A stretch of 64,000 nt of DNA, from contig OY754476.1 in the NCBI GenBank assembly GCA_963575645.1, forward strand, positions 7,998,001-8,062,000, written 5' to 3'. Position numbers and translations under genes: made by a program. This document shows positions 1,481 through 60,230 of the stretch, one piece after another; position 1 is the first letter of the stretch; every line of letters starts with the position of its first letter. The notes beneath the pieces were generated by a model. The model was given only the letters and a program-made list of their open reading frames with translations. It was not told where the DNA came from and did no database searches. This DNA is from Xanthostigma xanthostigma. Taxonomy: Eukaryota; Arthropoda; Insecta; Raphidioptera; Raphidiidae.

Positions 1481-1863
1481 TTCTAGAGATTTTTACAAAG
1501 GTTAGTAAATAATAAACAAACAACAAAACCATCGTAAGTTGACGATACTTCACAATTATTGTTTAATTAAACAAACATTTAAGCAATTAACAGTTTCACG
1601 TATTAATTTACAAATTTAAAATATAATAAAACACTGTAATATAAACAAATCACGGCCATATTTCCAATTTTTTATACCATTCTATGTCTGCGGCCCATGG
1701 ACATAATGCTGCGGCCAAATCATAGATGGGGTAAATGGTAACTATCAAATGTTAATGCTTTGTGCGCTAGAGAGAGATAACCTAAAAACTATCACAAGTT
1801 GGCTGAAATTTGATTTTATACGAATGAAATTTGGCATCTGATGTAACCGCAACCTAAATGTTA

Positions 1864-2070
1864 GGCCTAGTTTATATGGGAGGCGTTCAACGCGCGTTGG
1901 CCCAACGCGCGTTTACAGTTTCTATACAATTGTATAGAACTGTTTATATAACGCGCGTTCAACGCGCCACCAACGCGCGTTATCATATAAACAGTTCTAT
2001 ACAATTGTATAGAAACTGTAAACGCGCGTTGAGTCAACGCGCGTTGAACGCCTCTCATATAAACTAGGCC
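1864..2070. mobile_element. 207-bp palindromic MITE with CGCG subterminal repeats
   Basis: The ends GGCCTAGTTTATAT and ATATAAACTAGGCC are exact inverted copies, and pairing continues almost to the centre. Inside are about seven copies of an AACGCGCGTT-like motif and an inverted pair of CTATACAATTGTATAG. Flanks are TTA on the left and TAA on the right, so a TA duplication is possible but cannot be told from extension of the palindrome. Apparent ORFs on both strands are by-products of the symmetry. A shortened relative is at 55035. Confidence 0.85.
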
Positions 2071-2197
2071 TAAGCGCTATCGTTCATATCTGTGCTTAGT
2101 GCTAATTGTGTAAAATTCAGATGACATTAATAAGCACAGAAATAAAACTTTTGAAAAAGGTCAAATAAATTACAAACAATCTTTTCAAAATACTGCT

Positions 2198-14900: not shown

Positions 14901-17900
14901 TTTTTTTATTACTTTGTTTTGATTTGCCGTCACTAAGTTTTGACTTCAGTAAGCATCCTCCCACCAAAGTTACAAAGCTAACCGTTTTTTTTCTACATCA
15001 CCCCGCACCCGACACATTTCTTCTTTATGAGGTAAAACTAAAGTGTAGACACTACTGGTTGCCGGAAGTACAATGTCGGCATATAATAAAGTAGTAAGTA
15101 AAAAGTTTCAGTTAGTAAAAGTGTTAAACACAATGAAAACTGACAAGGTAAATGAATATTTCTGAAAATATTATTTTTAAACAAAAATGTGATTAGGTAT
15201 TTGTCATTATCGCGTAGTAATAGATTTATTAACCTTAAATGTGTTTGTTGTAATGCGAATTTATATTTTCTTTGTCAAAACGTGCATTATTAAAAAAATA
15301 ATATTTGCTTTGACACGATGCTTAACTCTGAGATCCTTACATTTATAATTTCCAAATGTATGTCTGTCTTTCCATGCCCTTGAGAAGGAAGCTGAAACTA
15401 ACTAAAATCGGCAAGGAACAGTTAGCGTTAATACAAGAAATTTTTAACAATGATTGCTACTTTTCGAAATAAAAAACCAAGATTCTGTATATCTCATTGT
15501 ATTATATTCAGAGAAAAATGAGGGAAATTGGCGTTTTTTAACACTTTTATTAACTTCTTTTGCATATATGTATGATTGTATATCTATGTATATTTGTATT
15601 TATCTAAAGCTATCTTTCGATTTAATTTTCACCCATTGCCAGACGCCTGAATAATTTGAAATTTTGGACACGTATTAGGAACCCGTGACAATACAATAAT
15701 TTATAGATAGATATACTTAACACAATATGATAGTACAATACGACCATGTGGATGTCAAATTTACATATTAAAATTTATAGTTAAAAAAAATTCTTCAGCA
15801 GTATAAAAACAGTTATTGGATAAAAAGATCCTTAATGTTTTTTAAAAGTTTCCAGTTGCAACATTTTGATCTCTTTAGGAAATTTGTTGTACAGGTTGAG
15901 ATTCTTATGTGAAATTTTTTTCAACAGTGGCTAATCTATATAGTGACAACGTAATCACGTAATTCTGAATGATATATAAATATTTTGTATGTTATATAAA
16001 AATAGTCATTTGAATGTTGATTTTTAGGATTATTATAATTAAAATTAGAGTTAGACAAGAGTCAGGCCACAAACTATTAAAAAAAAAATTAGAGTTTAAA
16101 AAAAAAATGAAGGAAAAAAACCACTTTTATAGCAGTGTGGACTAAAAAGGAAATAATAATTTTTAAATATAAATATTTTGTTCAACAGCGATAGGAAACC
16201 CCCCAACTCGTCATAGGGACCTTACTATCGCTGTTGAACAGTCTTATTAAAAGAGAATAATCAATAAATAAAATTATCGACTAATTTTTCAGATAATATA
16301 TTAACAAAAAATATAATTAATACATTAACGTTTCGATCCGGATTTGGGCCTTCTTCAGAACTGATCTAAAAAATATAAAAAATAATTAATATTTTACTAC
16401 TTAATAATTTTGAAAGAATTTTATATAAAGCGAATTAGTTATTAAATATTAATTATTTTTTAGATCAGTTCTGAAGAAGCTCCAAATCCGGATCGAAACG
16501 TTAATGTATTAATTAGTGTTGGGCACAATCGATATATTTCAATAATCGAATGAATCGAAATAATCGGTTTTTATAATCGAATGATCATTCGAATTATCGA
16601 TTATGAATGATTCGAATTATCGATTATGAATGATTCGAATGATCATTCGAATTATCGATTATGAATGATGGGCAAACTTGGAAATTATTAATTTCGTTTT
16701 ATTTACTTTTACAGTATAAGCGAATGATCATTCAAAATATCGATTATGAATTATGTTCAAACTTTGCAATTTCGATTTGTTAATATTACTTAACACAATA
16801 TTAATAATGGAATCGCTGCTATGATCGAATAGAAATAGAAATATATTTGTTATGCCCTAGATAAATACATCGTCAATTTACATAATGAGTTAAACATTAA
16901 AATTTAAAAAATCCTTAATGTCATAAAAACAATTTTTTAGAAATTTGATTTAATGCAGAAACCGAATGATATATCGATATATCACATTAATATCGACAGT
17001 GGACATAGCAATAGTACTGTGTCGGGATTTAATATTCATTCATATTTCATAATCGATTCAAGCGAATGATATCTCGGTTGCCATAATCGAATGATCGATT
17101 AAGTTAACACTAAGTACAACAAACTACAAAGTATGTACAATCGAAACACCTCCACTCTCCAGTGCTAGCAAAGACTTCCCATCCCAGTGCATGTAGATGC
17201 AGAAACCGAATGATATATCGATATATCACATTAATATCGACAGTGGACATAGCAATAGTACTGTGTCGGGATTTAATATTCATTTGATATTTCATAATCG
17301 ATTTAAGCGAATGATATCTCGGTTGCCATAATCGAATGATCGATTATTCGGCCATAATCGAAATATTTCGATTATATCATTCATAATCGCCCAACACTAG
17401 TATTAATTATATTTTTTGTTAATATATTGTCTGAAAAATTGGTCGATAATTTTATTTTTTAAAGAGTTCTAATCAGACTTAAATTAAAGATTTTAAAAGA
17501 GAATCTTTTATTAATGACTTAAGTGAGGAAAAATATACTAATTATTTTCGAATGGACAGAACATATTTTTAACTTCATGAATAAAGTGGCCAGTGACTAG
17601 AGCGACTAGCAATTACTTTAAAGTAATCATATCAGTGTTTTGAAATAGGAAAATAGGTATTATTAAAAAAAAAATTAGCAAGTCTTACAGTGGTCGCCAA
17701 TGATGTGTACCCAACTAAATTTCAGAAATGAATTCGTATAATGAACTGTAATCTAGTTATTTAATTTAATATTGTAAATGTTTATTTTATAAGTGCACGG
17801 TTGACAACTGTCTTCTTTTTCCTTTTTTTCTCTGTAGGCCGCACCAAAGAATCATATTATAATAAATTGAATAGCGCGCGCTTCTCTCACTTCCTTAACG

Positions 17901-20900: not shown

Positions 20901-23900
20901 TAGTTTAAAAATCCAAATAAACACGTATTTGTAGCGATGTGAACTAAAAAATAAAATATAATTTTTAAGTTTATAGATATAGTTCAACAGCGATAGGTAG
21001 ATCCCCCCAACTCAATGCCTAATAATAATTTTTTTTTTTTATTTCTTTTTGCGTTATTACAACGATACAGTGAGTAGTTTGAAATATTTTTCCCCTCACT
21101 GCATAACCATATTACCTGTACCGAGGGAATATAATTTAATTTTTTTAATAAGGTTAAAATGAGAATAGCTTATTAAAAAAATTAAATCAAATAAATAAAA
21201 CTGTCGACCAATTCTTCTCAGACCATATATTGACAAAAAATAATAAAAATACAAATCAATATAACAAAAGATGACGTTTCGATCCGGATTTGGATCTTCT
21301 TCAGAAATAACTAAAAAATATAAAAATTAATTAGTAATAAGTTACTTATTATCTAATAGATTGCACGCCAGATTGAAAGTTTGAATTATTAAAAAAATAA
21401 TGAAAAATTAATTCAAACTTTCAATCTGGCGTGCAATCTATTAGATAATAAATAACTTATTACTAATTAATTTTTATATTTTTTAGTTATTTCTGAAGAA
21501 GATCCAAATCCGGATCGAAACGTCATCTTTTGTTATATTGATTTGTATTTTTATTATTTTTTGTCAATATATGGTCTGAGAAAAATTGGTCGACAATTTC
21601 ATTTATTTGAACAGTTCTATTCAGACGTTAATCAAAGATTTTAAAAAATTAAATTATATTGAGTTGGGGAACATCCTATTGCTGTGGAACTTTATCTTTA
21701 AATTGTTAGTAGAAGTTTTGTTCCAAAAATATGTATTGAAGGAGATTTATTTGGTTGAGGAACAATTAAAAAATACGCTGTACCAGAGTATCGCTTGTAG
21801 CCAACGTTTCGAAAAATATATTTTCATCATCAGGGCCTCGGTGCAAGTTGAGATGATAAATTGTGCAAATTATTGTAATATACATGATCATTTATTAAGA
21901 ATTTCAACAGTTTCAACAAATAAATATTGTACTGTACAGTACAATATTTATTTTCACATTGGACAGAACAGTTTTATTAAAAAACTGTTTTATGATATGT
22001 TCAAATTTAAAAATTTATTTTTTTTTTTTAATTTTTTACTTTTTAGTTCACGTTGCTATAGTGTGTTGGGGGGGGGGGGGGGGGGTAAACTATAATTTTT
22101 GTGCATTAACTTAACAATAATATGTTTTTATTTACAGTTTGGAGATCAATTTCGAACATTTGTGATAGAATTATTCTTAAGAGGTTTAACAACCGATTTG
22201 AACGAATACGATAAACAGAAACAAAAAGGAGACTATTCGGTTTTCAAAATAATGGGAAAACGTCTTGCCAAAGCGTATTTGGAAATGGCAGATTTGTTCG
22301 AACTACACGTGGGTGTGAAGAGGGAGTTCATACTGACTGCTTTTAGTGTCGACCCCACGGAACAGCATTTAAAGTTAATTATAGAAGTGGCGAAGGCGTG
22401 CGGAAAACTTAAAGAAGAGCCCGAACAATCGGAAGAAGACACATCGGAAGGAGCTGCGTGCAAACTTCATAACGACGAGCCAGGTGACAATCTATGTCCC
22501 GATTGTGGAGATTGGGTAGCTTCCTTAAATATACCGGAGCCGTTCGATGCCGGTGCACGGACGCTAGATGCGCTGATCTTAATCAAAGGGGATGCCGTTA
22601 CCGAATCGACAAATTACGATGTCTTGTCAGCACCCAGTCTAGTATTAGATTCGGAAGTTCTCTGTCTCACGTCTCAGATTTGCGACGATTTAGCTGTTGT
22701 TCTCTCGAGTCCGAGGTATCATTTACTGAGCTGGGTGCTCGATTGGGTCGAATTGAAAAATGCATGCGAGCAATATTTATGCGGATCGAGCAACAGTTCG
22801 ATGTTAAATATGGAATTGAAATATCTTAAAATCGATTACGATCAATTTAAACATAGTCGTACCGAAGCGGACACGGATCCGTATTTCGGTATAGAAAGAG
22901 GTTACGAAAAATGGCTAGAACTAGACTCCGAAACGGACAGCGAATTGGGTGCGCTGTCGTCGGAACAAAAACCGGACAGCGATCGTGACGAAGACGACGA
23001 TAGTGACCCTGCGGAAATTTGTGTCAGGAACACAATTAAAACGTTAAGCAAAGACTCACAAAGCTATGCGATGAACGCGTGTGTGAGAAATAGAACGAAG
23101 GTACTGAGTACCGACTCTGAAAGTGAAAATAAGATTCGAGCGCGATCTATTCTCTACAGTGGCGGTCGTATATCCGAGGTGGAGACCGCTTCGATAGATT
23201 CCCGCGCAGACAGTTTGGGAAGTGACGGAACGCAAAACAAGAAAGACATGTTTTTTGTATCGAGACCTTTCGCTTCAATTTCGAGTACTAAAACTAACAA
23301 TTTCATTTCACGAGAAAAAAATACGACAGATTATTTGACGTCTTTAAATAGACTTCCTGACAATAAAAGTGCTCGTGATCCGTCTCTTTTAAAATCGTTG
23401 AGAATGTTTAGGCCGTCTCCTTTGAAACGTAAACAAAACGAGTGTCCGAACAGTGAACAAGTTCGAAAAAAGTTAAATGTCGCCAACAGTACATTTCCGA
23501 CCGAAATACCCATAATTGAAATTTCTGACTCCGATTCGGATATTCCGAGTGTCGAGGACACGATATGTGGGGAGTCGGTTTTTGATGAAACGATTAAATC
23601 GAACGTAGAAAATACCGTCAGTGTTAATACGAACACGGACGACGCAACAAACATTTCAGTATTAAATCCGCTCTCCGTCGTCGATAACGAAAACAATAGG
23701 TGTAAGGAGATAAAAAACGATATTTGTAAATTAGAAACCGTTAAAACCGAAAACAACAACATTATAGATAAAGATGTTCTTTTAGCGAAACCGATGATAC
23801 AAGTGGAAAAAATAACAAAGACTGACGACACTTTATTTGAAAGGAACGAAGAAAATTACAACTCCGAGAAAGGACGAAAACAAACACGTAAAAGATTTGC

Positions 23901-32839: not shown

Positions 32840-33829
32840 TACAGAGTGGGCCATATGTAATGAATAAATTCATTTTCTCAGTTAATATTTGTAGAAATAA
32901 GGAACCCTTAAACAAGTCGTTTTTTTTTTTTAATTACACTTAGTAGCGTAAAAAAATCATCCCTAGCTTCAGCCCCCTCAGCATGACACCACCCATAAAT
33001 TTTCAAATTGTAATGGTAGGCTTGTGACAACTCATTTCAAAGGTATATTAAATTTCCGTTCGAATGTGTGAATTATTTTTTATTGTATTGCCTAGTTACG
33101 GAGGTAATGACATCTGGAATTTAACATGAATATTTTGTGGGAAAATTACAAAATGGATGAAAAATAAAGCAAAGTGCTTCGTTTGCAAGACGGTCCCAAG
33201 ATTCGAATTTATTTGTCAATAATAATTTTTTTTTTTTTTTTTCAAATAAATAAAATTGTCGACCAATTTTTCTCAGACCAATATATTGACAAAAAATAAA
33301 AAAAATAACAAATCAATATAACACAAGATGACGTTTCGATCCGGATTTGGATCTTATTCAGAAAAATCTAAAAAATATAAAAATTCTTAGTATTAGTTAT
33401 TTAATATAGAATGCACGATGATTGAATATTTTTGAAAATATTAAATAACTAATACTAATAATTTGTTATTTTTTTATTTTTTGTCAATATATTGGTCTGA
33501 GAAAAATTGGTCGACAATTTTATTTTTTTGAAGAATTGTATTCAGACGTTAATCAAAGATTTGAATAATTTTTTTTCTTACTCAATCTCTGTAAGGCAAC
33601 AGAATCAAAAATAATGCCTTTTAGGTTTTAGGTTTCAGAAATCTACCGTCCCAATTTGAAAATTCTATGGGTGGTTAGTGTCCTATTGCGGAGAGGTTTA
33701 AACGAGAGGTGAACTTATTCTACTAAGTGTAATTTAGAAATTAAAAATCGACCTGTTTCAGGGTTTCTTAATTCTACAAATATTAACTGAGAAAATGAAT
33801 TTTTTCATTACATATGGTCCAAATGTATA
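32840..33829. mobile_element. MITE with long inverted ends, split by copy C
   Basis: The left end contains CCATATGTAATGAATAAATT, followed by CATTTTCTCAGTTAATATTTG. The right end is the inverse, closing at GTCCAAATGTA. TA flanks both ends. Copy C of the palindromic family lies inside. Confidence 0.72.
33242..33563 (+). mobile_element. Palindromic hammerhead-like element, copy C
   Basis: Outer arms (TCAAATAAATAAAATTGTCG ... and CGACAATTTTATTTTTTTGA) are inverted. The right arm lacks the ribozyme-like core; the left arm carries it on the minus strand at 33328-33360 with CTGAATA in place of CTGAAGA. The tail ends TTAATCAAAGATTTG. A duplication of about 12 bp (AATAATTTTTTT) flanks it, with the length blurred by T-runs. 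Confidence 0.75.
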
Positions 33830-35704: not shown

Positions 35705-35769
35705 TATGTATAAGCAAAACTTTTAACTGTTTAACAGTTCTAAAGACGATCACTCACATGTTTTATAAT

Positions 35770-35938
35770 AAGTTCGTTCCAAGCAGCCGTGAACGGTAAC
35801 AAAACTGTACACAGTCTTGTTACTGCGCAAGACTGTCTTGCGCAGAATCGATTTTTGAGCTAGTGCGCAAATTAGTCTTGCGCAGTGACAAGACTGTGTA
35901 CGGTTTCATTACCGTTCGAGGCTGCTTGGAACGAACCT
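35770..35938. mobile_element. Fold-back MITE, TTCCAAGCAGCC family, intact
   Basis: The ends GTTCGTTCCAAGCAGCC and GGCTGCTTGGAACGAAC are exact inverses. The centre has repeated inverted AGTCTTGCGCAG units. This is the best preserved copy of the family in the window. Confidence 0.8.
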
Positions 35939-38900
35939 AATAAATTATAAGCTTTCTTTTATAATTTTAATATACATAAAAAATCCATTTTTTTTCTTTA
36001 AAAAATGTTTTACAAGGTGTTTTCTGTTTTTATTTTTTTTAAATATACTTCTTTAATAATTAATTGGAGTTTTTTTTTTTTTACCAATTTTATAATTAAA
36101 TAGTATTTTTTTGTTAAACAATAAAATAATATACTTTGATAAAACTTAATCAGAAGTAAAATATCAAAATATTCAGATAAACTGTATTAAGAAAATTATC
36201 AATATAGAAATGTATCTATTATTTTTATACCTAATGAAAAGAATCATTTGCAATTTTTCTTTCCTTAACAACAGGACTTGTATAAAAAAATATTAATTCT
36301 GTTGCACATTTTTACAGACGCGATTATTTATGCTAAACAATTATACAAAAAATAATTTTGTTCAGAAAAACGATGCATTAAATACATAATTTGGTCTTGA
36401 AACTAAATTTTAAAATATTTATATTTTATTAATCATTCTATGACGACATTTTCCAGTTTTCTGCAAAGCATTTTTAATTACACCTTTTGTAGCATTAAAC
36501 AATAAGCTGAATTAAAAAAAAATATTGCGCATTCTCATCATCGAAATTTAATTTTTTTACTGTTCTCGCCGCTTATTGGCGACTGACATTCATCAATTAA
36601 GCCAATGTTGGAACTTATGTTCACTAATTTAAAGGTGTTAACTCGCAGCAAAGGCAACGACCTACTTACTTTTGCGGTTCATATATTAATATTGGACGGT
36701 GTGTTTAAAGAATTTGTGCCCAAAGTCGTGTTAACCTAATTTTAGCACTCTAGGTAGATAATTGCCTTCCCCAAGAATTATCCTTTATTGGGATTTTACC
36801 TGGAGGCAGAGCTCATTACATAATATTCAATATGGCCGCCCTATGCGAAGCGTCTACATCGACAATATACAAGGTTCCGATGTTTTATTTAAAATGTATA
36901 TTTCCGAGGAAAAAAATTGTCGTTGGAGTGATACTAATTCATCAAAACGTAATTATATTGAAGGAAAAAAATCGCGAGTACTGGTCACATCGTAAAATGT
37001 GGCAGAATCATTGATGCCAGACGGAGGTTAACTTTGCCGCTTTTTTCAAATTTGAAAGAAACCGCACGAATTCAACGGTGCATAATCAGCTGACAGCTGT
37101 TTTTTTTTTTCAATTTAATAATATCAACATTCAGAAAACCGCTTTCCTGTTAATGAATTGTTTTGAAAACAATCAGTATTGCCTCGAATATTGTGTAATT
37201 TGATTATAAACATTAATAATTACAGCAGAGTTTAAACACTACAAGATTATTTTCTGCACAAATTGCAATATTATTATACTATTTTTTTAAGTGGAAGTAG
37301 GTGCCAAATCAAATATAATTTATCTGAATTTTTACACTTTTTGTATTATTTTTGAAAACATGTTAATAAGAAATGTGTATATTGTAATGTAATTTGAAGA
37401 GATGAAATCTTTTTTAAAATAAAAAATAATACAGTGCCGTCTGTTACACATTTTAAATTAATGTTTTTATTATAAATGTACATTTTTCTGTTACAGGCAA
37501 ACCGATATTGTGTCAAAAATATTGTAAATCGCCCCAGCTGTCGAGCATCTATAATTTACCTCAATCTATAATTTCGTTTTCGTGCGGTTTTCAGGTATTT
37601 TGTAATTTACATCGATCTGTATCGATGATTGTTAATTTTAAAACAATGTTTATTATCGACATTTTATAAAATTTGCCTGTTAATTTCAAAATGTCATACG
37701 CGTAGGCAATCGATTATAATTTGGCCATGTGCTATGAAAAACGTTCTACGTAGGTACCCCTTGCGGCCACGCGAAAAAAAATTACCCTGTTTTAATATGC
37801 TATGGAAAACGTTTCGCCTTGACGCTATGCGATATAAAACTAATATAGGTACGGGTGTTGAAAAAGTCCCGGTATCCCGGAATAACTCTTTCTTTACCTC
37901 GAATAAAAAAATGTTTGAGACAAAAGTTGTTCGGATTTGAAGGAAGGGTCGTTTGCATACAAAACCACCCTTCACCCCCTCGCGGGGGCTGTCGATAACT
38001 TGAAAATTTCAAATGGCAACCCCTATTTCTTATTAGCTTAATGACTTCTCCGATTAAAAATAATCACCTTTTGTCCGAAACTTTTTTTTGTTGTTCCCCA
38101 ACTCTATATAATTAAATTAATGAATAAGCTTAAAATGAGAATGACTTGGTATTCAAAAAATTAAATTATATCGAGTTAGGCGACATCCTATCGCTGTGGA
38201 CAGCACAAAAATCATTATATTTAAAAATTATTTTTTACTTTTTAGTGTACATTTCTATAAAAGCGTGTTTCTTTAGTATTTTACTAATTTCCATTTCCAA
38301 ACTAAACAATGACACCCTGTATACGTATCTACATTCATAACGGTAATATTGTTCAAATGGCACCACTTGCCTGGGGACATTTTAAATATTATTTGAATTC
38401 CGGGTTATTTCTTAAGTTTATAACTACTTAGATAGTACCAGTGGCGGCGGATGTAAAGGGCACAAAAAGCGCGCTCTGAAGGCCTCATTATCACACGAGC
38501 AAAATTAGGTGCGGCTTGGGAATTTCCAAACGCTATTACATTCGTGTTTTTTATGATAGGTACTCCTTTTCGGTTACTGAATATGAAATAAAGTTAATAA
38601 GGCTTTTAATTTTGTTCGATATTTTGGTATAATATAAGTACGTATTAAATCTACACCTGACCAAGTGCTATAACTAGGGCGGTGAATTGCAAGTTACTGC
38701 AAGACGTGTGTACAACTAAGTAACTAACAATCGAAATAATACCTAATGTCTATTGACCACTTTTTTCAACATAAGTATTATAGTATAAGCAATAGATATT
38801 TGCAATAGTTTCCTTTTCTAATTAACTTTTAATTGCACTGTCTAAAGCATCACTCAATTAATCAATTGTAAATTAAATAGATAAAAATGTAATTAATTAA

Positions 38901-48452: not shown

Positions 48453-51400
48453 ATGGCACGCCGAGTTTTTGTTGTTGGAGTAGGAATGACAAAAGTGAGT
48501 TGTAAAAATTATTTTAAAAAGAAAAACACCGTTAAAGTAGACAGTTGTAAATAATTAATAAACTTTCTCTATCTGTTAGATAATACCCAATGAAATGTTT
48601 TCAGTTTTTGTACACCAAAACATGTATACTCTTCAATAAATAAAATTATCGACCAATTTTTCAGACAATATATTAACAAACAATATAAAATTAATACATT
48701 AACGTTTCAATCCGGATTTGGACCTTCTTCTGAAGAAGGTCCAAATCCGGATTGAAACGTTAATGTATTAATTTTATATTGTTTGTTAATATATTGTCTG
48801 AAAAATTGGTCGATAATTTTATTTATTGAAGAGTTCTAATCAGACGTTAATCAAAGATTTGAACATGTATACTCTGTAGGTAATTTGTAATTGAGAACCA
48901 TACCGATTTAAACTAAATGCTATTAAATCTTTTTGTTAAAATATACAGTCTGGAACTTCTTACCCGTTCCCAGATGAGTTGAAGGGTTCAAATTCAAGAT
49001 ATTTGTAGATTATACAGCCCTTAAACTAATTTGCCAGTTCGACAGTTTGTAAACCGATATCCTGAAGCAAATTTTCATTATAGAAAATCGCCTGAACTGA
49101 AAAGAAAAGAACAAATTTTTTTCTAACTATTCTTTTATTGTAGTTTGAGAAACCTGGTAAACGAGATGATTTTGATTACCCTCAAATGGTTAAAGAATCC
49201 GTAACGAAGGCCCTATCTGATGCCAAGCTACGACATTCCGATATAGAACAAGCAAGCGTCGGATATGTCTATGGTAGGTAAATCTTTCGTAATATTTATT
49301 TTGCAGTACAGTGTTGGATTTAGAAGTTCGCAGAAATTTTCATATTTAATATTTCTGAAAAGGGAACATTTTGAGAAGAGGGAAAACTTTCTCTTTTGCA
49401 CTCGCACCGACGCCCAATACTAGTTATTGTACCTCTTTTATCGCTCGAAGTCGTTTTTTTTACTCAGTTGCTCCAACTCTAAACCTGGCACTACAATGAT
49501 AAATGATTTTATCCTAAGTTGTAACTTCTGTAAATATACTTTTTAGGCGATTCTACGTCTGGACAACGAGCCCTTTATGAAATTGGAATGTCGGGAATTC
49601 CGGTTTATAATGTCAATAATAATTGCTCAACAGGATCGACCGCTCTGTTATTAGCAAAACAATTCATCGAAACCGGAAATAATCATTGCGTCTTGGCTGT
49701 CGGTTTTGAGAAAATGGAACGTGGCTCTCTTCAATCTAAGGTGTAGTAAACTTAATCGTTATTATTTTTTTTATTATATAGCAGAGATGCACAGACTTAT
49801 TGGGACCAAGGGCCACTAGGACAGATTATGAACTAAAGTTTACTAATCAAACATCAAGAAAAAAATAGATTAATAGCGTGAAAACTGTGTAATTGAATTT
49901 TTTTTTATAAAATGTTTTCTGAAATTTAGTTGGCATTTTAGTTTATGGATCGAACAAATCCTATGGATAAACATGTAGAATTAATGGCTGAACTAGCAGG
50001 CATTGACCATACTCCAATTACGGCCCAATTGTTTGGAAACGCTGGCAAAGAACACATGGAACGTTATGGAACAAAACCGGAACATCTCGCAAAAATTGCG
50101 TACAAAAATCACAAACATTCAACCAACAATCCGTTAGTACAAAACATTGTTTGCTATTAGCATTTCTCAATATTAGTATAGCAGCTGTAACCGGCCACGC
50201 GTTGCTGTGGCTCAGTCTGGTTTGCGTGTGTTGCTGTCACGTTCAACAAATGACGTTCCCCTTGCTGTAAACTATTTAGTATAACGTGTGTTGCTTTAAC
50301 GTCCAACAGATGGCGCTGTGTTCACCTCTCACATATAATAGGTATATAAAAACATGCGCGTATTCGAATGCAACGTTGTGTTAAAATTTCAAGAAGAACT
50401 TTCAGAGATTTAAGATTTTGGATAAACGAGCATTTACATTTTTATTTATATAAGTTTTATAAATGTTTTCAGCTACTCACAATTTCGCGATGAATATTCG
50501 TTGGAACAGATACTGAAGTCACCACAAGTATTTGGACCACTTACGAAATTACAGTGTTGTCCAACAAGCGATGGATCAGCTGCAGCTATTTTGGCGTCGG
50601 AAGAATTTGTACGAGCACATGGACTTGAAGCGCAAGCTGTTGAAATCGTGGGAATGGAAATGGCTACAGACTTACCGTCAACATTTAAAGATAGAAGTCA
50701 TATGAAAATTGTATGTATTCTGAAAACATTGTATAGTAAAAACATTTGAATAACATTGCCATTGTTTTTGTTTTCAGGTCGGTTATGATATGACGAAAGC
50801 TGCAGCGGACCGTCTTTTTCATAAAACACCATACAAACCGACAGATGTTGACGTAGTTGAATTACATGATTGTTTTTCTGCTAATGAACTCATAACTTAC
50901 GAAGCTCTAGGACTGTGCCCTCCTGGTAAAGCTGGAGAATTGATTGATTCAGGAGCTAATACGTACGGTGGAAAGTACGTCATCAATCCAAGTGGAGGAC
51001 TTATTTCTAAAGGACATCCATTAGGAGCTACGGGTATGTGAACTTGTTGACTATTTGTTAACCGACTTCAAAAAAAAAAAGGGACTCGAGTTGACTTTCT
51101 AATACAGTAGAACCTCGATAAGTTAAAGTTCAAGGGAAACGTTGAAAAATTTAATTTACCGAGCTTTTTACTTATCGAGAGTTGAAGTTAGAGAGGTTTT
51201 GGAAGTTAATTTTTTAACTTAACGAGGTTCAACTGTTCTAATAAAACGTAAGCGATTTAGTGAAAGACTAAAGTGAAAATTTATAAAGTTCTGGGCAAAG
51301 CCTTTTGTTTGTATACTTATTCACGATGACTCAGTGATAATACATTAAGTTATGGGGGTCACCAAAATATTATGTTAAGTTATCGAGGGCCAATGCTCAA

Positions 51401-55100: not shown

Positions 55101-55870
55101 TTCTTAGTATAATTTATATTCTGATAAAATGATAGAAAACTTTTAATTTTTGAATTTTATAATATGCCCTCCATAGTTTATATAGGCAGTAGATTTTTAT
55201 TAAATGCGGATTATACTGTACTGTGTACCAGTTAGGGCTTGGAATTTTTCAAAATAAAGTAATCAAATGTTTGTTCGAATTTCTATTCGAATAGTGAAAG
55301 ATAAATCGATATTTGGATTGTTTCAAAAATAATTTATATTTTTATTAAAAAAAGCAGAATGGGAATTATTCCGAAAATTAATTTTAATAAAATTATAGAT
55401 CATCAAAAATATTCAAAATTTTAATAAATGTTCTCATCTATACATTTTATGTAATGGTTCAGTTTAGAATGTTGGAATATTTAAATATCTAAACAATCGA
55501 ATAAATTCCTGGCCCCCGACCAATCATTCCTTTGACAGTTTATCTAATACAATAGTTGTTAGTAAATCATAATTAATTTTAAGTCGTCTATTAGTAATAG
55601 AGTGGTGCAATGCATTAATAATTAATTAATATTTCGGTTATATTGGCATTATTGTGTAAATATGAATTTGTGATATTATATATTGTTTTTGTTAAAAAAA
55701 TTAATATTCACAAATTTTTAAAATAGTTGGTTTTTATATTTTTAAATTAATAAACTGTTTTCAAAACGTATTATTTATTTTGTTTACGTAAAATTATAAG
55801 AAATTATCACCAAGCCCATCCGTCATGCTGTCACATAAAAAATTTGTAAAAATTGTAAACATCTTTAAGA

Positions 55871-57153
55871 GGCCACCGACCACAGGGTTGGGCTTCTTTT
55901 TGAACTTGGAGTGTCATTTCCTGTTGGTATAAACCGTCTAGACCTTAAAAGCGAGTTTTTGGAAAATATCTAAAATCGACTAAAAACGCGATTTTTCCCA
56001 TAGTATAGCCTTAGTTTTTTTGTGATTTTTTTAAGACAATTTTGGACAATGTCTCCGATCCGATTCAAATTCGGTAGGCTTATGTAAAATGACACGCTGA
56101 AGTCAGTAAGCCCCTCCGTTGCTTCGTATCACTTACCGTTTCGAAGATAGACCCGTTCGAAGTTGTTTTCTGGAAAGTCTGGAATACGCATCGGATACAA
56201 TTAAAATTCGGTGTACTGATAGAAAACGACACGCTGAATTCAATGAGCGCACCCGGAGTCTGTATCTATAACCGTTTCTGAGATAGAGGCGTTTGAACGT
56301 CGCTTCGGTGTTTAAAAACACTTTAAATGCCCACCGAACCAAAAGTTGAGCTTATTTTTTGATTCGGAGTGTTATTCCCTGTTAGTATAAGCCGTCTGGA
56401 CCTGAAGAGCGAGTTATTGGAAAATCTTGAAAATCGACTAAAAACGCGATTTTTCCCATAGTATAGCCTTAGTTTTTTTGTGATTTTTTTAAGACAATTT
56501 TGGACAATGTCTCCGATCCGATTCAAATTCGGTAGGCTTATGTAAAATGACACGCTGAAGTCAGTAAGCCCCTCCGTTGCTTCGTATCACTTACCGTTTC
56601 GAAGATAGACCCGTTCGAAGTTGTTTTCTGGAAAGTCTGGAATACGCATCGGATGCATTTAAAATTCGGTGTACTGATAGAAAACGACACGCTGAATTCA
56701 ATGAGCGCACCCGGAGTCTGTATCTATAACCGTTTCGGAGATAGAGGCGTTTGAACGTCGCTTCGGTGTTTAAAAACACTTTAAATGCCCACCGAACCAA
56801 AAGTTGAGCTTATTTTTTGATTCGGAGTGTCATTCCTTGTTAGTATAAGCCGTCTGGACCTGAAGAGCGAGTTATTGGAAAATCTTGAAAATCGACTAAA
56901 AACGCGATTTTTCCCATAGTATAGCCTTAGTTTTTTTGTGATTTTTTTAAGACAATTTTGGACAATGTCTCCGATCCAATTCAAATTTGGTAGGCTTATG
57001 TGAAATGGCACGCTGAAGTCAACGAGCCCCTCCGTTGCTTCGTATCACTTACCGTTTCGAAGATAGACCCGTTCGAAGTGTTTTTCTGGAAAGTCTGGAA
57101 TACGCATCGGATACAATTAAAATTCGGTGTACTGATAGAAAACGACACGCTGA
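55871..57153 (+). repeat. Tandem repeat, 458-bp period, about 2.8 copies
   Basis: Units start near 55871, 56328 and 56786, each beginning at a CCACCGA block. Copies 2 and 3 differ at few positions and the last is cut short at about 57153. Within each unit a ~125-bp half is itself duplicated (GACACGCTGAAGTCAGTAAG against GACACGCTGAATTCAATGAG). Minus-strand ORFs of 69 and 76 aa recur only because the DNA repeats. Confidence 0.9.
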
Positions 57154-58141: not shown

Positions 58142-60230
58142 ATGAATGTAGATCTATCGGTTTTTCAAGAACCCAGGGGCGTGATGAGAATTTTTCAATT
58201 TGTGAGTAACATTTTTTTACATAAATTTATCTGTAAGCAAAACGATAATGTAGATATTTTGTTTCAGATATTTTCAATATGTGCTTTTTCAACGACTTCG
58301 AGTTTCACTAATACTATGAAATATATATGCAACAACACAACCGTTTCAACTTACACTTATGAATATCCATTTGTACTTAATTTTACACCATTTGCGGACG
58401 CAGTCTGTAACAGCACAGGACGTCCCAAAGCAAATATAGAAATTCTCGCGGATTTCTCTTCCGATTCACAATTTTTTGTTGCTACTGGTGTTCTTTCACT
58501 GCTGTACTGCCTGGTGATAATAGCAGTGTATACAATGTTTGACAGTATTTACAAAAATGATACAAGAGTCCCACTCGGAGTAAGATATTATGTTCCTATA
58601 TTATATTCCCTTAGATTGTAAATACGTTATTATTATTGAAGTGAAAACTTCTTTAGCGGCGTTGTACACTTTTTTTGTAATGGGTAAAAAATGTTAAACT
58701 CGCGTCAGGACACGTGACCTGATTGAAAATTCATAAGACCTGATCGAAAATTCGTAAGACAAAAACTTTTTGTACACTTTTTTTGTAATGGGTAAAAAAT
58801 GTTAAACTCGCGTCAGGACCCGTGCCTGATCGAAAATTCGTAAGACAAAAACTTTTGTACACTTTTTTTGTAATGGGTAAAAAATGTTAAACTCGCGTCA
58901 GGACACGTGCCTGATCGAAAATTCGTAAGACGAAAACTTTTGTACACTTTTTTTGTAATGGGTAAAAAATGTTAAACTCGCGTCAGGACCCGTGCCTGAT
59001 CGAAAATTCGTAAGACGAAAACTTTTGTACACTTTTTTTGTAATGGGTAAAAAATGTTAAACTCGCGTCAGGACACGTGCCTGATCGAAAATTCGTAAGA
59101 CGAAAACTTTTGTACACTTTTTGTAATGGGTAAAAAATGTTAAACTCGCGTCAGGACACGTGCCTGATCGAAAATTCGTAAGACGAAAACTTTTGTACAC
59201 TTTTTGTAATGGGTAAAAAATGTTAAACTCGCGTCAGGACACGTGCCTGATCGAAAATTCGTAAGACGAAAACTTTTGTACACTTTTTGTAATGGGTAAA
59301 AAATGTTAAACTCGCGTCAGGACACGTGCCTGATCGAAAATTCGTAAGACGAAAACTTTTGTACACTTTTTGTAATGGGTAAAAAATGTTAAACTCGCGT
59401 CAGGACACGTGCCTGATCGAAAATTCGTAAGACGTTAATATTCAAGTTTTCACTTCTGCCGGCACTCCCGGAGTGCAACCCGTCTTTTTTATTGAACAAT
59501 TAGAATCAGAACATTGACTTGACAATAATTTAGAGTCCATCCGAAGGTGATTTTTTTAGCCAAAGCTGAACTTTGATTTATTCCACCTTTGGCCAGAGTC
59601 GAAAGGAACTGCATCAGATAAAAAAAAGCAAAATACACTCTTAAATCAAGATGCAGTGTTTATTTTTAATAATTCACATTTTATGTGCCAAAAACAAGTA
59701 TATTTATTTGTGAGTCAAGTATATCAAAATAACACGCAGCGTCTGATATCAGCAGCAAGGGACTTTTGGCTTTGACAAACATTTGGTTTGTTTTTGACCA
59801 AAGCCAAAGACAATTATTCGATGGAACTGTAATAAATGTAAATCATTCTGAATCTGTAAGAGGTATTTTTCTGTTTGCAGGATTTCATTATAACGGTTAT
59901 TTTGGCTGTGTTTTGGATATCCGGTAGTGGAGCTTGGGCTAATGGAGTTTCATGCTTAAAAGATATAACAAGTTCTAAATACAAACCGTATTGCTGCGAT
60001 CTTACAACCGGAACATTTTCCAGTTTAAACATTTCTATTGTATGTCGATAATTTTTTTTTTTTTGGTTTTGTAGCATTTCGAATTGTTAATAGTAACATT
60101 GTTTTTGTTACAGATTCTCGGTTTCTTGAATTTCTTTTTATGGGCATCTGATTTATGGTTTATTTATAAAGAAACAGTTTGGTTTCAACAGAGACAACCG
60201 ACGAGCGATGGAATGTCTCCGGGAATTTAA
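58142..60230 (+). CDS. Synaptophysin-family MARVEL membrane protein
   Basis: Exons 58142-58201, 58268-58579, 59881-60039 and 60114-60230 join in phase 0 to 215 residues. Four membrane segments lie at about 15-31, 96-118, 125-145 and 177-196. The start EPRGVMRIFQF and the block YEYPF are family signatures. The third and fourth segments (WISGSGAWANGV, then ILGFLNFFLWASDLWF and YKETVW) align with synaptophysin AWAKGL and [20 protein letters not shown]. Possible N-glycosylation sites (CNNTT, CNST) lie in the first lumenal loop. The C-terminal tail is only about 18 residues and lacks the Tyr/Gly-rich repeats of neuronal vertebrate synaptophysin, closer to synaptophysin-like proteins. Likely in small vesicles. 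Intron 2 contains the minisatellite. Confidence 0.92.
58634..59442 (+). repeat. Minisatellite, nine copies of an 82-85 bp unit
   Basis: The block GTAATGGGTAAAAAATGTTA followed by AACTCGCGTCAGGA occurs nine times. Spacing is 110, 85, 85, 85, 85, 82, 82, 82 bp. The first copy has an extra internal duplication of the CCTGATCGAAAATTCGTAAGAC part. It lies within intron 2 of the synaptophysin-family gene. Confidence 0.95.

What the first reader, a model, noticed from the sequence alone, without database searches (positions are those of the whole stretch)
48633..48861. Four-copy palindromic retroelement family with a hammerhead-ribozyme-like core
Copies A-D (16259, 21187, 33242, 48633) share the same left end (TCAATAAATAAAA type), the same single-copy tail ending CAAAGATT(TG), and 12-14 bp target duplications of variable sequence. 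Such duplications point to target-primed insertion and not to a DNA transposon. Each arm carries CTGAAGA (hammerhead consensus CUGANGA), then a short potential stem (GATCC/GGATC with loop AAATCC in copies B and C), then GAAAC followed by GTC or GTT. Hammerheads are known in Penelope-like elements and in animal retrozymes. Two points are against an active ribozyme: one extra A lies between CUGANGA and stem II, and I see no convincing stem I pairing. The ACGT after GAA is self-complementary, which would allow a dimeric stem III.
Basis: partly seen in the sequence, partly recalled or inferred. Interest (0 to 1): 0.75.

Follow-up and report, generated by a model that had tools for sequence, protein, structure and literature searches.

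The report
Palindromic Penelope-type retroelements with hammerhead motif
Four short palindromic repeats in an animal genome look like gene-less passengers of Penelope-type retroelements, inserted as two head-to-head copies, and they carry a small ribozyme-like RNA fold that full-length Penelope elements of the same genome also conserve.

Summary
Copies A-D belong to a dispersed family with constant ends, target duplications of about 12-14 nt, a tail at one end only and a hammerhead-like block (decayed or missing in copy C). The window's genome (623 Mb, unnamed) is rich in Penelope-like elements (PLEs) with reverse transcriptase and GIY-YIG endonuclease. Of nine two-ended PLE insertions examined, eight share the plan: head-to-head arms, exact 12-14 nt target duplications, one arm ending 67-77 nt after GAAAC (tailless), the other 99-127 nt (tailed); the ninth could not be resolved. 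Copy D gives 76 and 108. Twelve PLE-locus motifs conserve a 3-bp stem I, stem II, a covarying 3-8 core pair and one extra nucleotide before stem II. A model built from them finds copies A, B and D; copy C only at chance level. No ORF-bearing partner with this pLTR was found; cleavage is untested. PLEs and their hammerheads are known; the non-coding palindromic family and the tail asymmetry are the newer parts.

The parts
16247..16258 (.). copy A, left target duplication TTAAAAGAGAAT (right one 17493-17504)
16259..17492 (+). copy A: head-to-head pLTR pair, right arm split by a hAT-like insert; tail at right
16328..16358 (-). hammerhead-like block, copy A left arm (R1 E 7.1e-6)
16471..16501 (+). 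hammerhead-like block, copy A right arm (R1 E 2.3e-7)
16514..17399 (.). later hAT-like insert inside copy A (TIR TAGTGTTGGGC, TSD GTATTAAT)
21188..21642 (+). copy B: 202-nt arms, 98% complementary, around a 20-nt centre, tail at right, TSD AAAAAATTAAAT
21274..21304 (-). hammerhead-like block, copy B left arm (R1 E 7.5e-5, core only)
21493..21523 (+). hammerhead-like block, copy B right arm (R1 E 7.5e-5, core only)
33234..33563 (+). copy C: arms of unequal length, tail at right; left edge blurred by a T-run
33331..33361 (-). decayed hammerhead-like block, copy C left arm (CTGAATA; R1 E 0.035, not above chance)
48619..48632 (.). copy D, left target duplication AACATGTATACTCT (right one 48862-48875)
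48633..48861 (+). copy D: arms 100% complementary (103 nt as listed, which takes in a few flanking bases) with 1 nt at the centre, tail at right
48730..48760 (+). hammerhead-like block, copy D right arm (R1 E 1.8e-4)
48702..48732 (-). hammerhead-like block, copy D left arm (R1 E 0.03, weak)
48830..48861 (+). single-copy 32-nt tail of copy D, read as the stretch between two reverse-transcription start sites
   Evidence: and PMC11167929
21795..21841 (-). further PLE-type hammerhead motif outside the four copies (R1 E 3.1e-9), with stem I and stem II

Best explanation
Copies A-D are non-coding Penelope-like insertions. Shown: each is two partial copies of one PLE-type pseudo-LTR (pLTR) joined head to head, with about 12-14 nt target duplications and a tail (32 nt in D) at one end only, as in ORF-bearing PLEs of the same genome; seven of eight arms carry the PLE hammerhead motif, one of them decayed. 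Inferred: a PLE protein cuts both target strands 12-14 nt apart and primes reverse transcription from both 3' ends on pLTR RNA, starting at the outer internal site on one strand (tailed end) and at the inner site on the other (tailless end); the two cDNAs are joined where the RNA's 5' side was reached, giving a palindrome whose centre differs from copy to copy. In copy D the centre falls on TTC-T-GAA, which A and B show to be natural, near self-complementary sequence. Inferred: the hammerhead works, if at all, as a dimer through self-complementary ACGU (stem III), probably protein-assisted, and is not needed for insertion.
For: ORF-bearing PLEs abound: 150 of 521 GIY-YIG candidates scored, 150 of 1948 with a PLE GIY-YIG query, open frames up to 888 aa, RT and GIY-YIG in one frame by eye in two examples. 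In the 150 places, neighbours within 10 kb are -/+ 22, -/- 9, +/+ 2, +/- 0. Of 9 two-ended PLE insertions, 8 have an exact 12-14 nt TSD with one tailed and one tailless arm; the ninth (L086/L088) has no flank word over 6 nt. The family is dispersed: copy D 103 matches, 40 of 61 candidates scored; copy B 69 matches, 40 of 2728 scored. In 13 two-armed elements (two are copies B and D) TSDs are 11-15 nt, 11 exact and 2 with one mismatch. PLE motifs: 107 of 108 cells paired, covariation 0.852 against 0.241 shuffled, 0 of 500. Held-out model finds A, B, D. The PAc motif has the same anatomy. A. vaga PLEs: head-to-head inverted pLTRs, junction palindromes, 31-bp tail, 8-10 bp TSDs (PMC3846280, passages and Discussion).
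Against: No copy carries an ORF and no ORF-bearing PLE with this pLTR was found: the arm profile on 60 PLE loci matched well only at the edges of L102 and L105 and weakly in L079/L117, read as separate insertions. L145 is two-armed with both ends tailless and no TSD; L155 is unclear; 6 of 11 later picks are single-armed. A second copy in L070, and L108 and L112, gave no TSD. The Anolis study saw no difference in start site between strands, so the strand rule is not expected from it. 22 of 60 GIY-YIG loci lack an R1 match below E 1e-8, the L089-L106 group among them. Copy C's R1 score is below that of a probable chance match.
Confidence: 0.84

Rival explanations
1. Same PLE origin, but the palindrome comes from one cDNA (or an antisense template) folding back and priming itself, not from two separate priming events.
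For: PMC3846280 proposes self-priming from junction palindromes. Arms within a copy are 90-100% identical. Copy D's centre is a natural TTC-T-GAA.
Against: A fold-back copy of the tailed cDNA would be expected to copy the tail as well, yet the left end is tailless in 15 of 15 copies checked (13 elements plus window A and C), a set chosen with a tailed query. 8 of 9 ORF-bearing insertions show one tailless and one tailed end. Copy C's arms differ in extent.
Confidence: 0.25
2. Animal retrozyme: the hammerhead cuts a tandem transcript, the RNA is circularised and the circle is the reverse-transcription template.
For: A hammerhead-like motif in a short non-coding element; PLEs are proposed to mobilise animal retrozymes (PMC7761336, passages).
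Against: Arms are inverted, not direct tandem repeats. The subfamily with more candidates (B/C) lacks stem I beyond 1 bp. An 82-bp insertion with an exact 13-nt TSD has no R1 match. Retrozymes are described as short tandem repeats (PMC7229834, passages).
Confidence: 0.06
3. Foldback DNA transposon (MITE) moved by a transposase.
For: Long inverted repeats with target duplications.
Against: TSD length varies (11-15 nt), the tail is at one end only, length varies 82-483 bp, and the plan equals that of RT-bearing PLEs.
Confidence: 0.02
4. The conserved block is kept as protein code (PLE N-terminus), not as RNA fold.
For: In PAc the ORF starts inside the motif; copy B has one open frame across it.
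Against: Changes on both sides in stem I, stem II and the 3-8 pair among 12 motifs; in the L132 family a candidate ORF start lies 106 nt after GAAAC.
Confidence: 0.04

Closest known systems
Poseidon PLE of Anolis carolinensis (PAc; PMC11167929, parts 1-3 of 4 read)
   Same: Core CUGAGGA, one extra U, stem II, GAAACGUC, 3-bp stem I. Two internal RT start sites explain the tail; AT-rich target preferred; both strands cut and extended. The four window TSDs are 6 of 51 G+C.
   Different: ORF-bearing, in tandem. There start site did not differ between strands; here two-ended insertions mostly have one tailed and one tailless end. A9 to cut is 29 nt there, 26 here.
Penelope elements of the rotifer Adineta vaga (PMC3846280, passages and Discussion read)
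   Same: Head-to-head inverted pLTRs, palindromic junction, 31-bp tail on one pLTR, short TSD, solo pLTRs and DNA captured between pLTRs.
   Different: Low copy number and TSDs of 8-10 bp there; here a numerous family with no coding part. The word hammerhead does not occur in that text.
Minimal PLE hammerheads thought to cleave as dimers (Cervera and de la Pena 2014; Lunse et al. 2017)
   Same: Reviews (passages) describe minimal type I hammerheads in PLE pLTRs lacking helix III, which may cleave as dimers.
   Different: Neither paper is held, so whether they show the extra nucleotide is unknown to me.
Animal non-LTR retrozymes (PMC7229834, passages read)
   Same: Short, non-autonomous, type I hammerhead, TSDs longer than 4 bp when present.
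   Different: Tandem repeats giving circular RNA; here inverted pairs, and one subfamily without a stem I.

Membership tests
Penelope-like element insertion | RT plus GIY-YIG ORF in the element | tested here: not met
   Copies are too short for it, and no relative with the same pLTR and an ORF was found in the loci held. So: a non-autonomous derivative, not a PLE in the full sense.
Penelope-like element insertion | pLTRs, often head-to-head inverted | tested here: met
   4 of 4 copies; in the PLE list, 22 of 22 opposite-strand neighbours.
Penelope-like element insertion | 30-40 nt tail at the 3' end of one pLTR | tested here: met
   32 nt in copy D; ends 76 and 108 nt from GAAAC, PLEs 67-77 and 99-127 in 8 of 9.
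Penelope-like element insertion | Variable-sequence target duplication | tested here: met
   A, B, D exact 12, 12, 14; C weak; PLEs 12-14 in 8 of 9.
Hammerhead ribozyme, type I minimal (PLE) | Core C3UGANGA9 and G12AA | tested here: met
   6 of 8 arms; copy C decayed or missing.
Hammerhead ribozyme, type I minimal (PLE) | Stem II directly after A9 | tested here: not met
   One extra nucleotide, as in 12 of 12 PLE motifs and in PAc.
Hammerhead ribozyme, type I minimal (PLE) | Stem I | tested here: inconclusive
   3 bp in A and L072, 2 in D, 1 in B/C; 12, 11 and 11 of 12 families paired at the three positions.
Hammerhead ribozyme, type I minimal (PLE) | Match to an Rfam hammerhead model | tested here: not met
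   but 0 of 7 PLE loci match either.
Hammerhead ribozyme, type I minimal (PLE) | Self-cleavage after GUH | not testable with these tools
   Needs bench work.
Retrozyme | Direct tandem hammerhead units | tested here: not met
   Arms inverted in 4 of 4 copies.
Retrozyme | Circular RNA | not testable with these tools
   No RNA data.
DNA transposon (MITE/foldback) | Fixed TSD length and symmetric termini | tested here: not met
   TSD 11-15 nt, tail at one end only in 13 of 13 elements.

The most novel reading that the evidence does not exclude
A non-coding PLE passenger family, the PLE counterpart of a SINE, has spread to many copies with little more than the two RT start sites in common. Its insertions record that PLE integration is a two-strand reaction in which the two target strands use different start sites on the RNA, one outer and one inner, and the hammerhead (with an extra core nucleotide conserved across PLE families) is dispensable for insertion.
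Probability: 0.48. Interest if true: 0.68.

Novelty: new variant of a known kind. Interest (0 to 1): 0.52.

Why it matters
How PLEs integrate is largely unknown. Short palindromic passengers with intact target duplications are simple records of the reaction: they fix both ends, both presumed start sites and the joining point in a few hundred bases. The pattern of one tailed and one tailless end, seen in 8 of 9 ORF-bearing insertions, can be tested with the existing Anolis assay. The covariation shows what PLE hammerheads of this genome keep (3-bp stem I, 3-8 pair, extra nucleotide) and that the Rfam models used here do not see them.

Tried and rejected
Rfam at gathering and relaxed thresholds: no hammerhead; kept as a miss but shown not to discriminate. 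Motif scan of viral and prokaryote collections: 12 and 56 stretches, 7 of 68 matches with a stem of 4 bp or more, taken as chance; these collections are not of eukaryotes. Single-strand folding of four arms: z-scores -0.69 to 0.28, no signal. ORF-bearing partner: nhmmer of the arm profile on 60 PLE loci found none; tblastn of two PLE proteins on 16 copy loci gave no match; L145 has no PLE ORF. An early idea that the A9-to-cut distance equals that of PAc was wrong: 29 there, 26 here. The R1 match at 51124-51151 (E 0.0099, 28 nt) is treated as chance. Literature searches for non-autonomous or solo-pLTR PLE families (15 of 198 and 15 of 46 papers listed) showed none that I recognised, from titles and abstract starts only.

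Rows dropped before counts: four near-duplicates (A_R, copy B, L086, L122) of 16; four of 17 printed hairpins (L093, L104, L121 at 885, L128 at 723) that lack the core, and L121 at 484 was left out of A1 as close to L119. Stem II is circular because chose hairpins; stem I and the 3-8 pair were not criteria of that script, though rows were kept by eye for a UGA core and some had first been seen by a CTGANGA pattern. Of 14 copy loci examined, 12 gave 13 elements with a TSD; L108, L112 and a second copy in L070 did not. These loci were best matches to tailed queries, hence biased towards a tail; the later 11 (L145-L155) were chosen because the listed match lacked one.

Full report
What is there. 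The four copies exist at the places given. Copy D (48633-48861) has fully complementary arms with one base between them; copy B has 202-nt arms, 98% complementary. Aligning the eight arms in sense orientation gives two subfamilies, A/D and B/C. The 31-nt hammerhead-like block is 28-30 of 31 identical between subfamilies where both have it, while the stretch between it and the tail is 57-61% identical counting gaps. The right end carries a single-copy tail; the left end does not. Copy A's right arm is interrupted by an 886-bp hAT-like element. Copy C's right arm lacks the block and its left arm has a core substitution.

Chance. Exact flank repeats of 12, 12 and 14 nt for A, B and D compare with 0.26% of random pairs reaching 12. 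C's repeat is in a T-run and weak. The motif pattern has 4 matches in the window and none in 100 shuffles.

Genome context. The window is part of a 623-Mb assembly. Copy D gives 103 matches, with 40 of 61 candidates scored; copy B 69 matches, with 40 of 2728 scored. Candidates are a first look, not confirmed copies. GIY-YIG (PF01541) gives 150 scored of 521 candidates, a PLE GIY-YIG query 150 of 1948. Two translated examples have reverse transcriptase and GIY-YIG in one frame, by eye. Among the 150 places, neighbours within 10 kb are -/+ 22, -/- 9, +/+ 2 and +/- 0, so every opposite-strand pair in that list is head to head.

Same insertion plan. For nine PLE insertions both arms were in hand, found by protein and not by tail. 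In eight, both flanks share an exact word of 12-14 nt; one arm ends 67-77 nt after GAAAC, the other 99-127 nt. The ninth (L086/L088) has no flank word over 6 nt and was not classified. In copy D the distances are 76 and 108. Elsewhere, 13 two-armed elements of the window's family (two of them copies B and D) have TSDs of 11-15 nt (11 exact, 2 with one mismatch), lengths 82-483 bp, a tailless left and a tailed right end; with window copies A and C that is 15 of 15. These were best matches to tailed queries. Of 11 places chosen because the tail was absent from the listed match, L150, L152 and L154 are two-armed and one-tailed, L145 is two-armed with no tail and no TSD, L155 is unclear and six are single-armed. 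One 82-bp insertion in L076 has an exact 13-nt TSD and no R1 match, so the motif is not needed for insertion.

The RNA motif. In sense orientation, 386-654 nt after the GIY-YIG match, many PLE loci carry [C/U]UGANNA, one further base, a hairpin and GAAAC, nearly always followed by GUU. In 12 such motifs (A1, none from the window) 107 of 108 cells pair; stem I is 3 bp with changes on both sides at all three pairs; the core pair 3-8 is U-A in 7 and C-G in 5; the covariation score is 0.852 against 0.241 in shuffles, and slid registers give at most 0.206. Some rows are close relatives, so cells are not independent events. The fourth stem I position does not pair beyond chance. C3-G8 to U3-A8 covariation is already known in natural hammerheads (PMC3088659, section read). 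Model R1, built from A1, was run on the window with filters off: A right 2.3e-7, A left 7.1e-6, B both arms 7.5e-5 (core only), D right 1.8e-4, and an unpredicted site at 21795-21841 minus, 3.1e-9; D left (0.03) and C left (0.035) score below a probable chance match at 51124 (0.0099), so they are not evidence on their own. In 60 PLE loci R1 matches 38 at E below 1e-8; 12 of these gave A1 and match by construction, others are the same places or near copies. Misses are L080 (looks like a host nuclease gene, by eye), L085, L089-L106, L118 and L127.

The extra A: present in 12 of 12 PLE motifs, and in the Anolis element the published RNA reads CUGAGGA, U, a 6-bp stem II, GAAACGUC, with a stem I of exactly 3 bp. 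That ribozyme cleaved only with its protein, was not needed for insertion in vitro, and no RNA-seq ends were found at its cut site (PMC11167929, parts 1-3 read). Stem I: A/D has GUU/AAU, B/C only one pair; copy D keeps two.

Mechanism. Both ends of each two-armed copy read inward as antisense pLTR, as expected if cDNA was primed from both target strands; the Anolis enzyme cuts and extends both strands and starts at two internal sites that bound the tail. The inferred step is that the two strands use different sites; the Anolis paper reports no strand difference. The alternative, fold-back self-priming, was proposed for A. vaga; it does not easily give a left end without the tail. In copy D the joint lies on TTC-T-GAA, natural sequence in A and B.

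Limits. Cleavage is untested. Cervera 2014, Lunse 2017 and Craig 2021 are not held, so the novelty of the extra nucleotide cannot be judged here.

Noticed in passing
window 21795-21841 (-): A complete PLE-type hammerhead motif (stem I GCC/GGC, CUGAUGA, extra U, stem II GAAAA/UUUUC, GAAACGUU) just 3' of copy B, not part of the four copies.
   Followed up: partly
window 16514-17399: hAT-like element with TIR TAGTGTTGGGC and 8-bp TSD GTATTAAT, inserted in copy A.
   Followed up: partly
window 58678-59436 and 55863-57078: An 83-85 bp tandem array and three copies of a 458-bp tandem unit.
   Followed up: no
window 1861-2073, 35766-35942, 32847-33821: Other inverted-repeat elements; the 84-nt arms of the last flank copy C.
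   Followed up: no
L089-L106 (GIY-YIG loci): A PLE group whose loci show no strong hammerhead match; only weak R1 matches in L091, L093, L094 and L098 (E 0.04-0.07) and L097 (0.92).
   Followed up: no
L070: One copy of the family appears inserted next to another (TSD ACTCTTAAATAAA).
   Followed up: no
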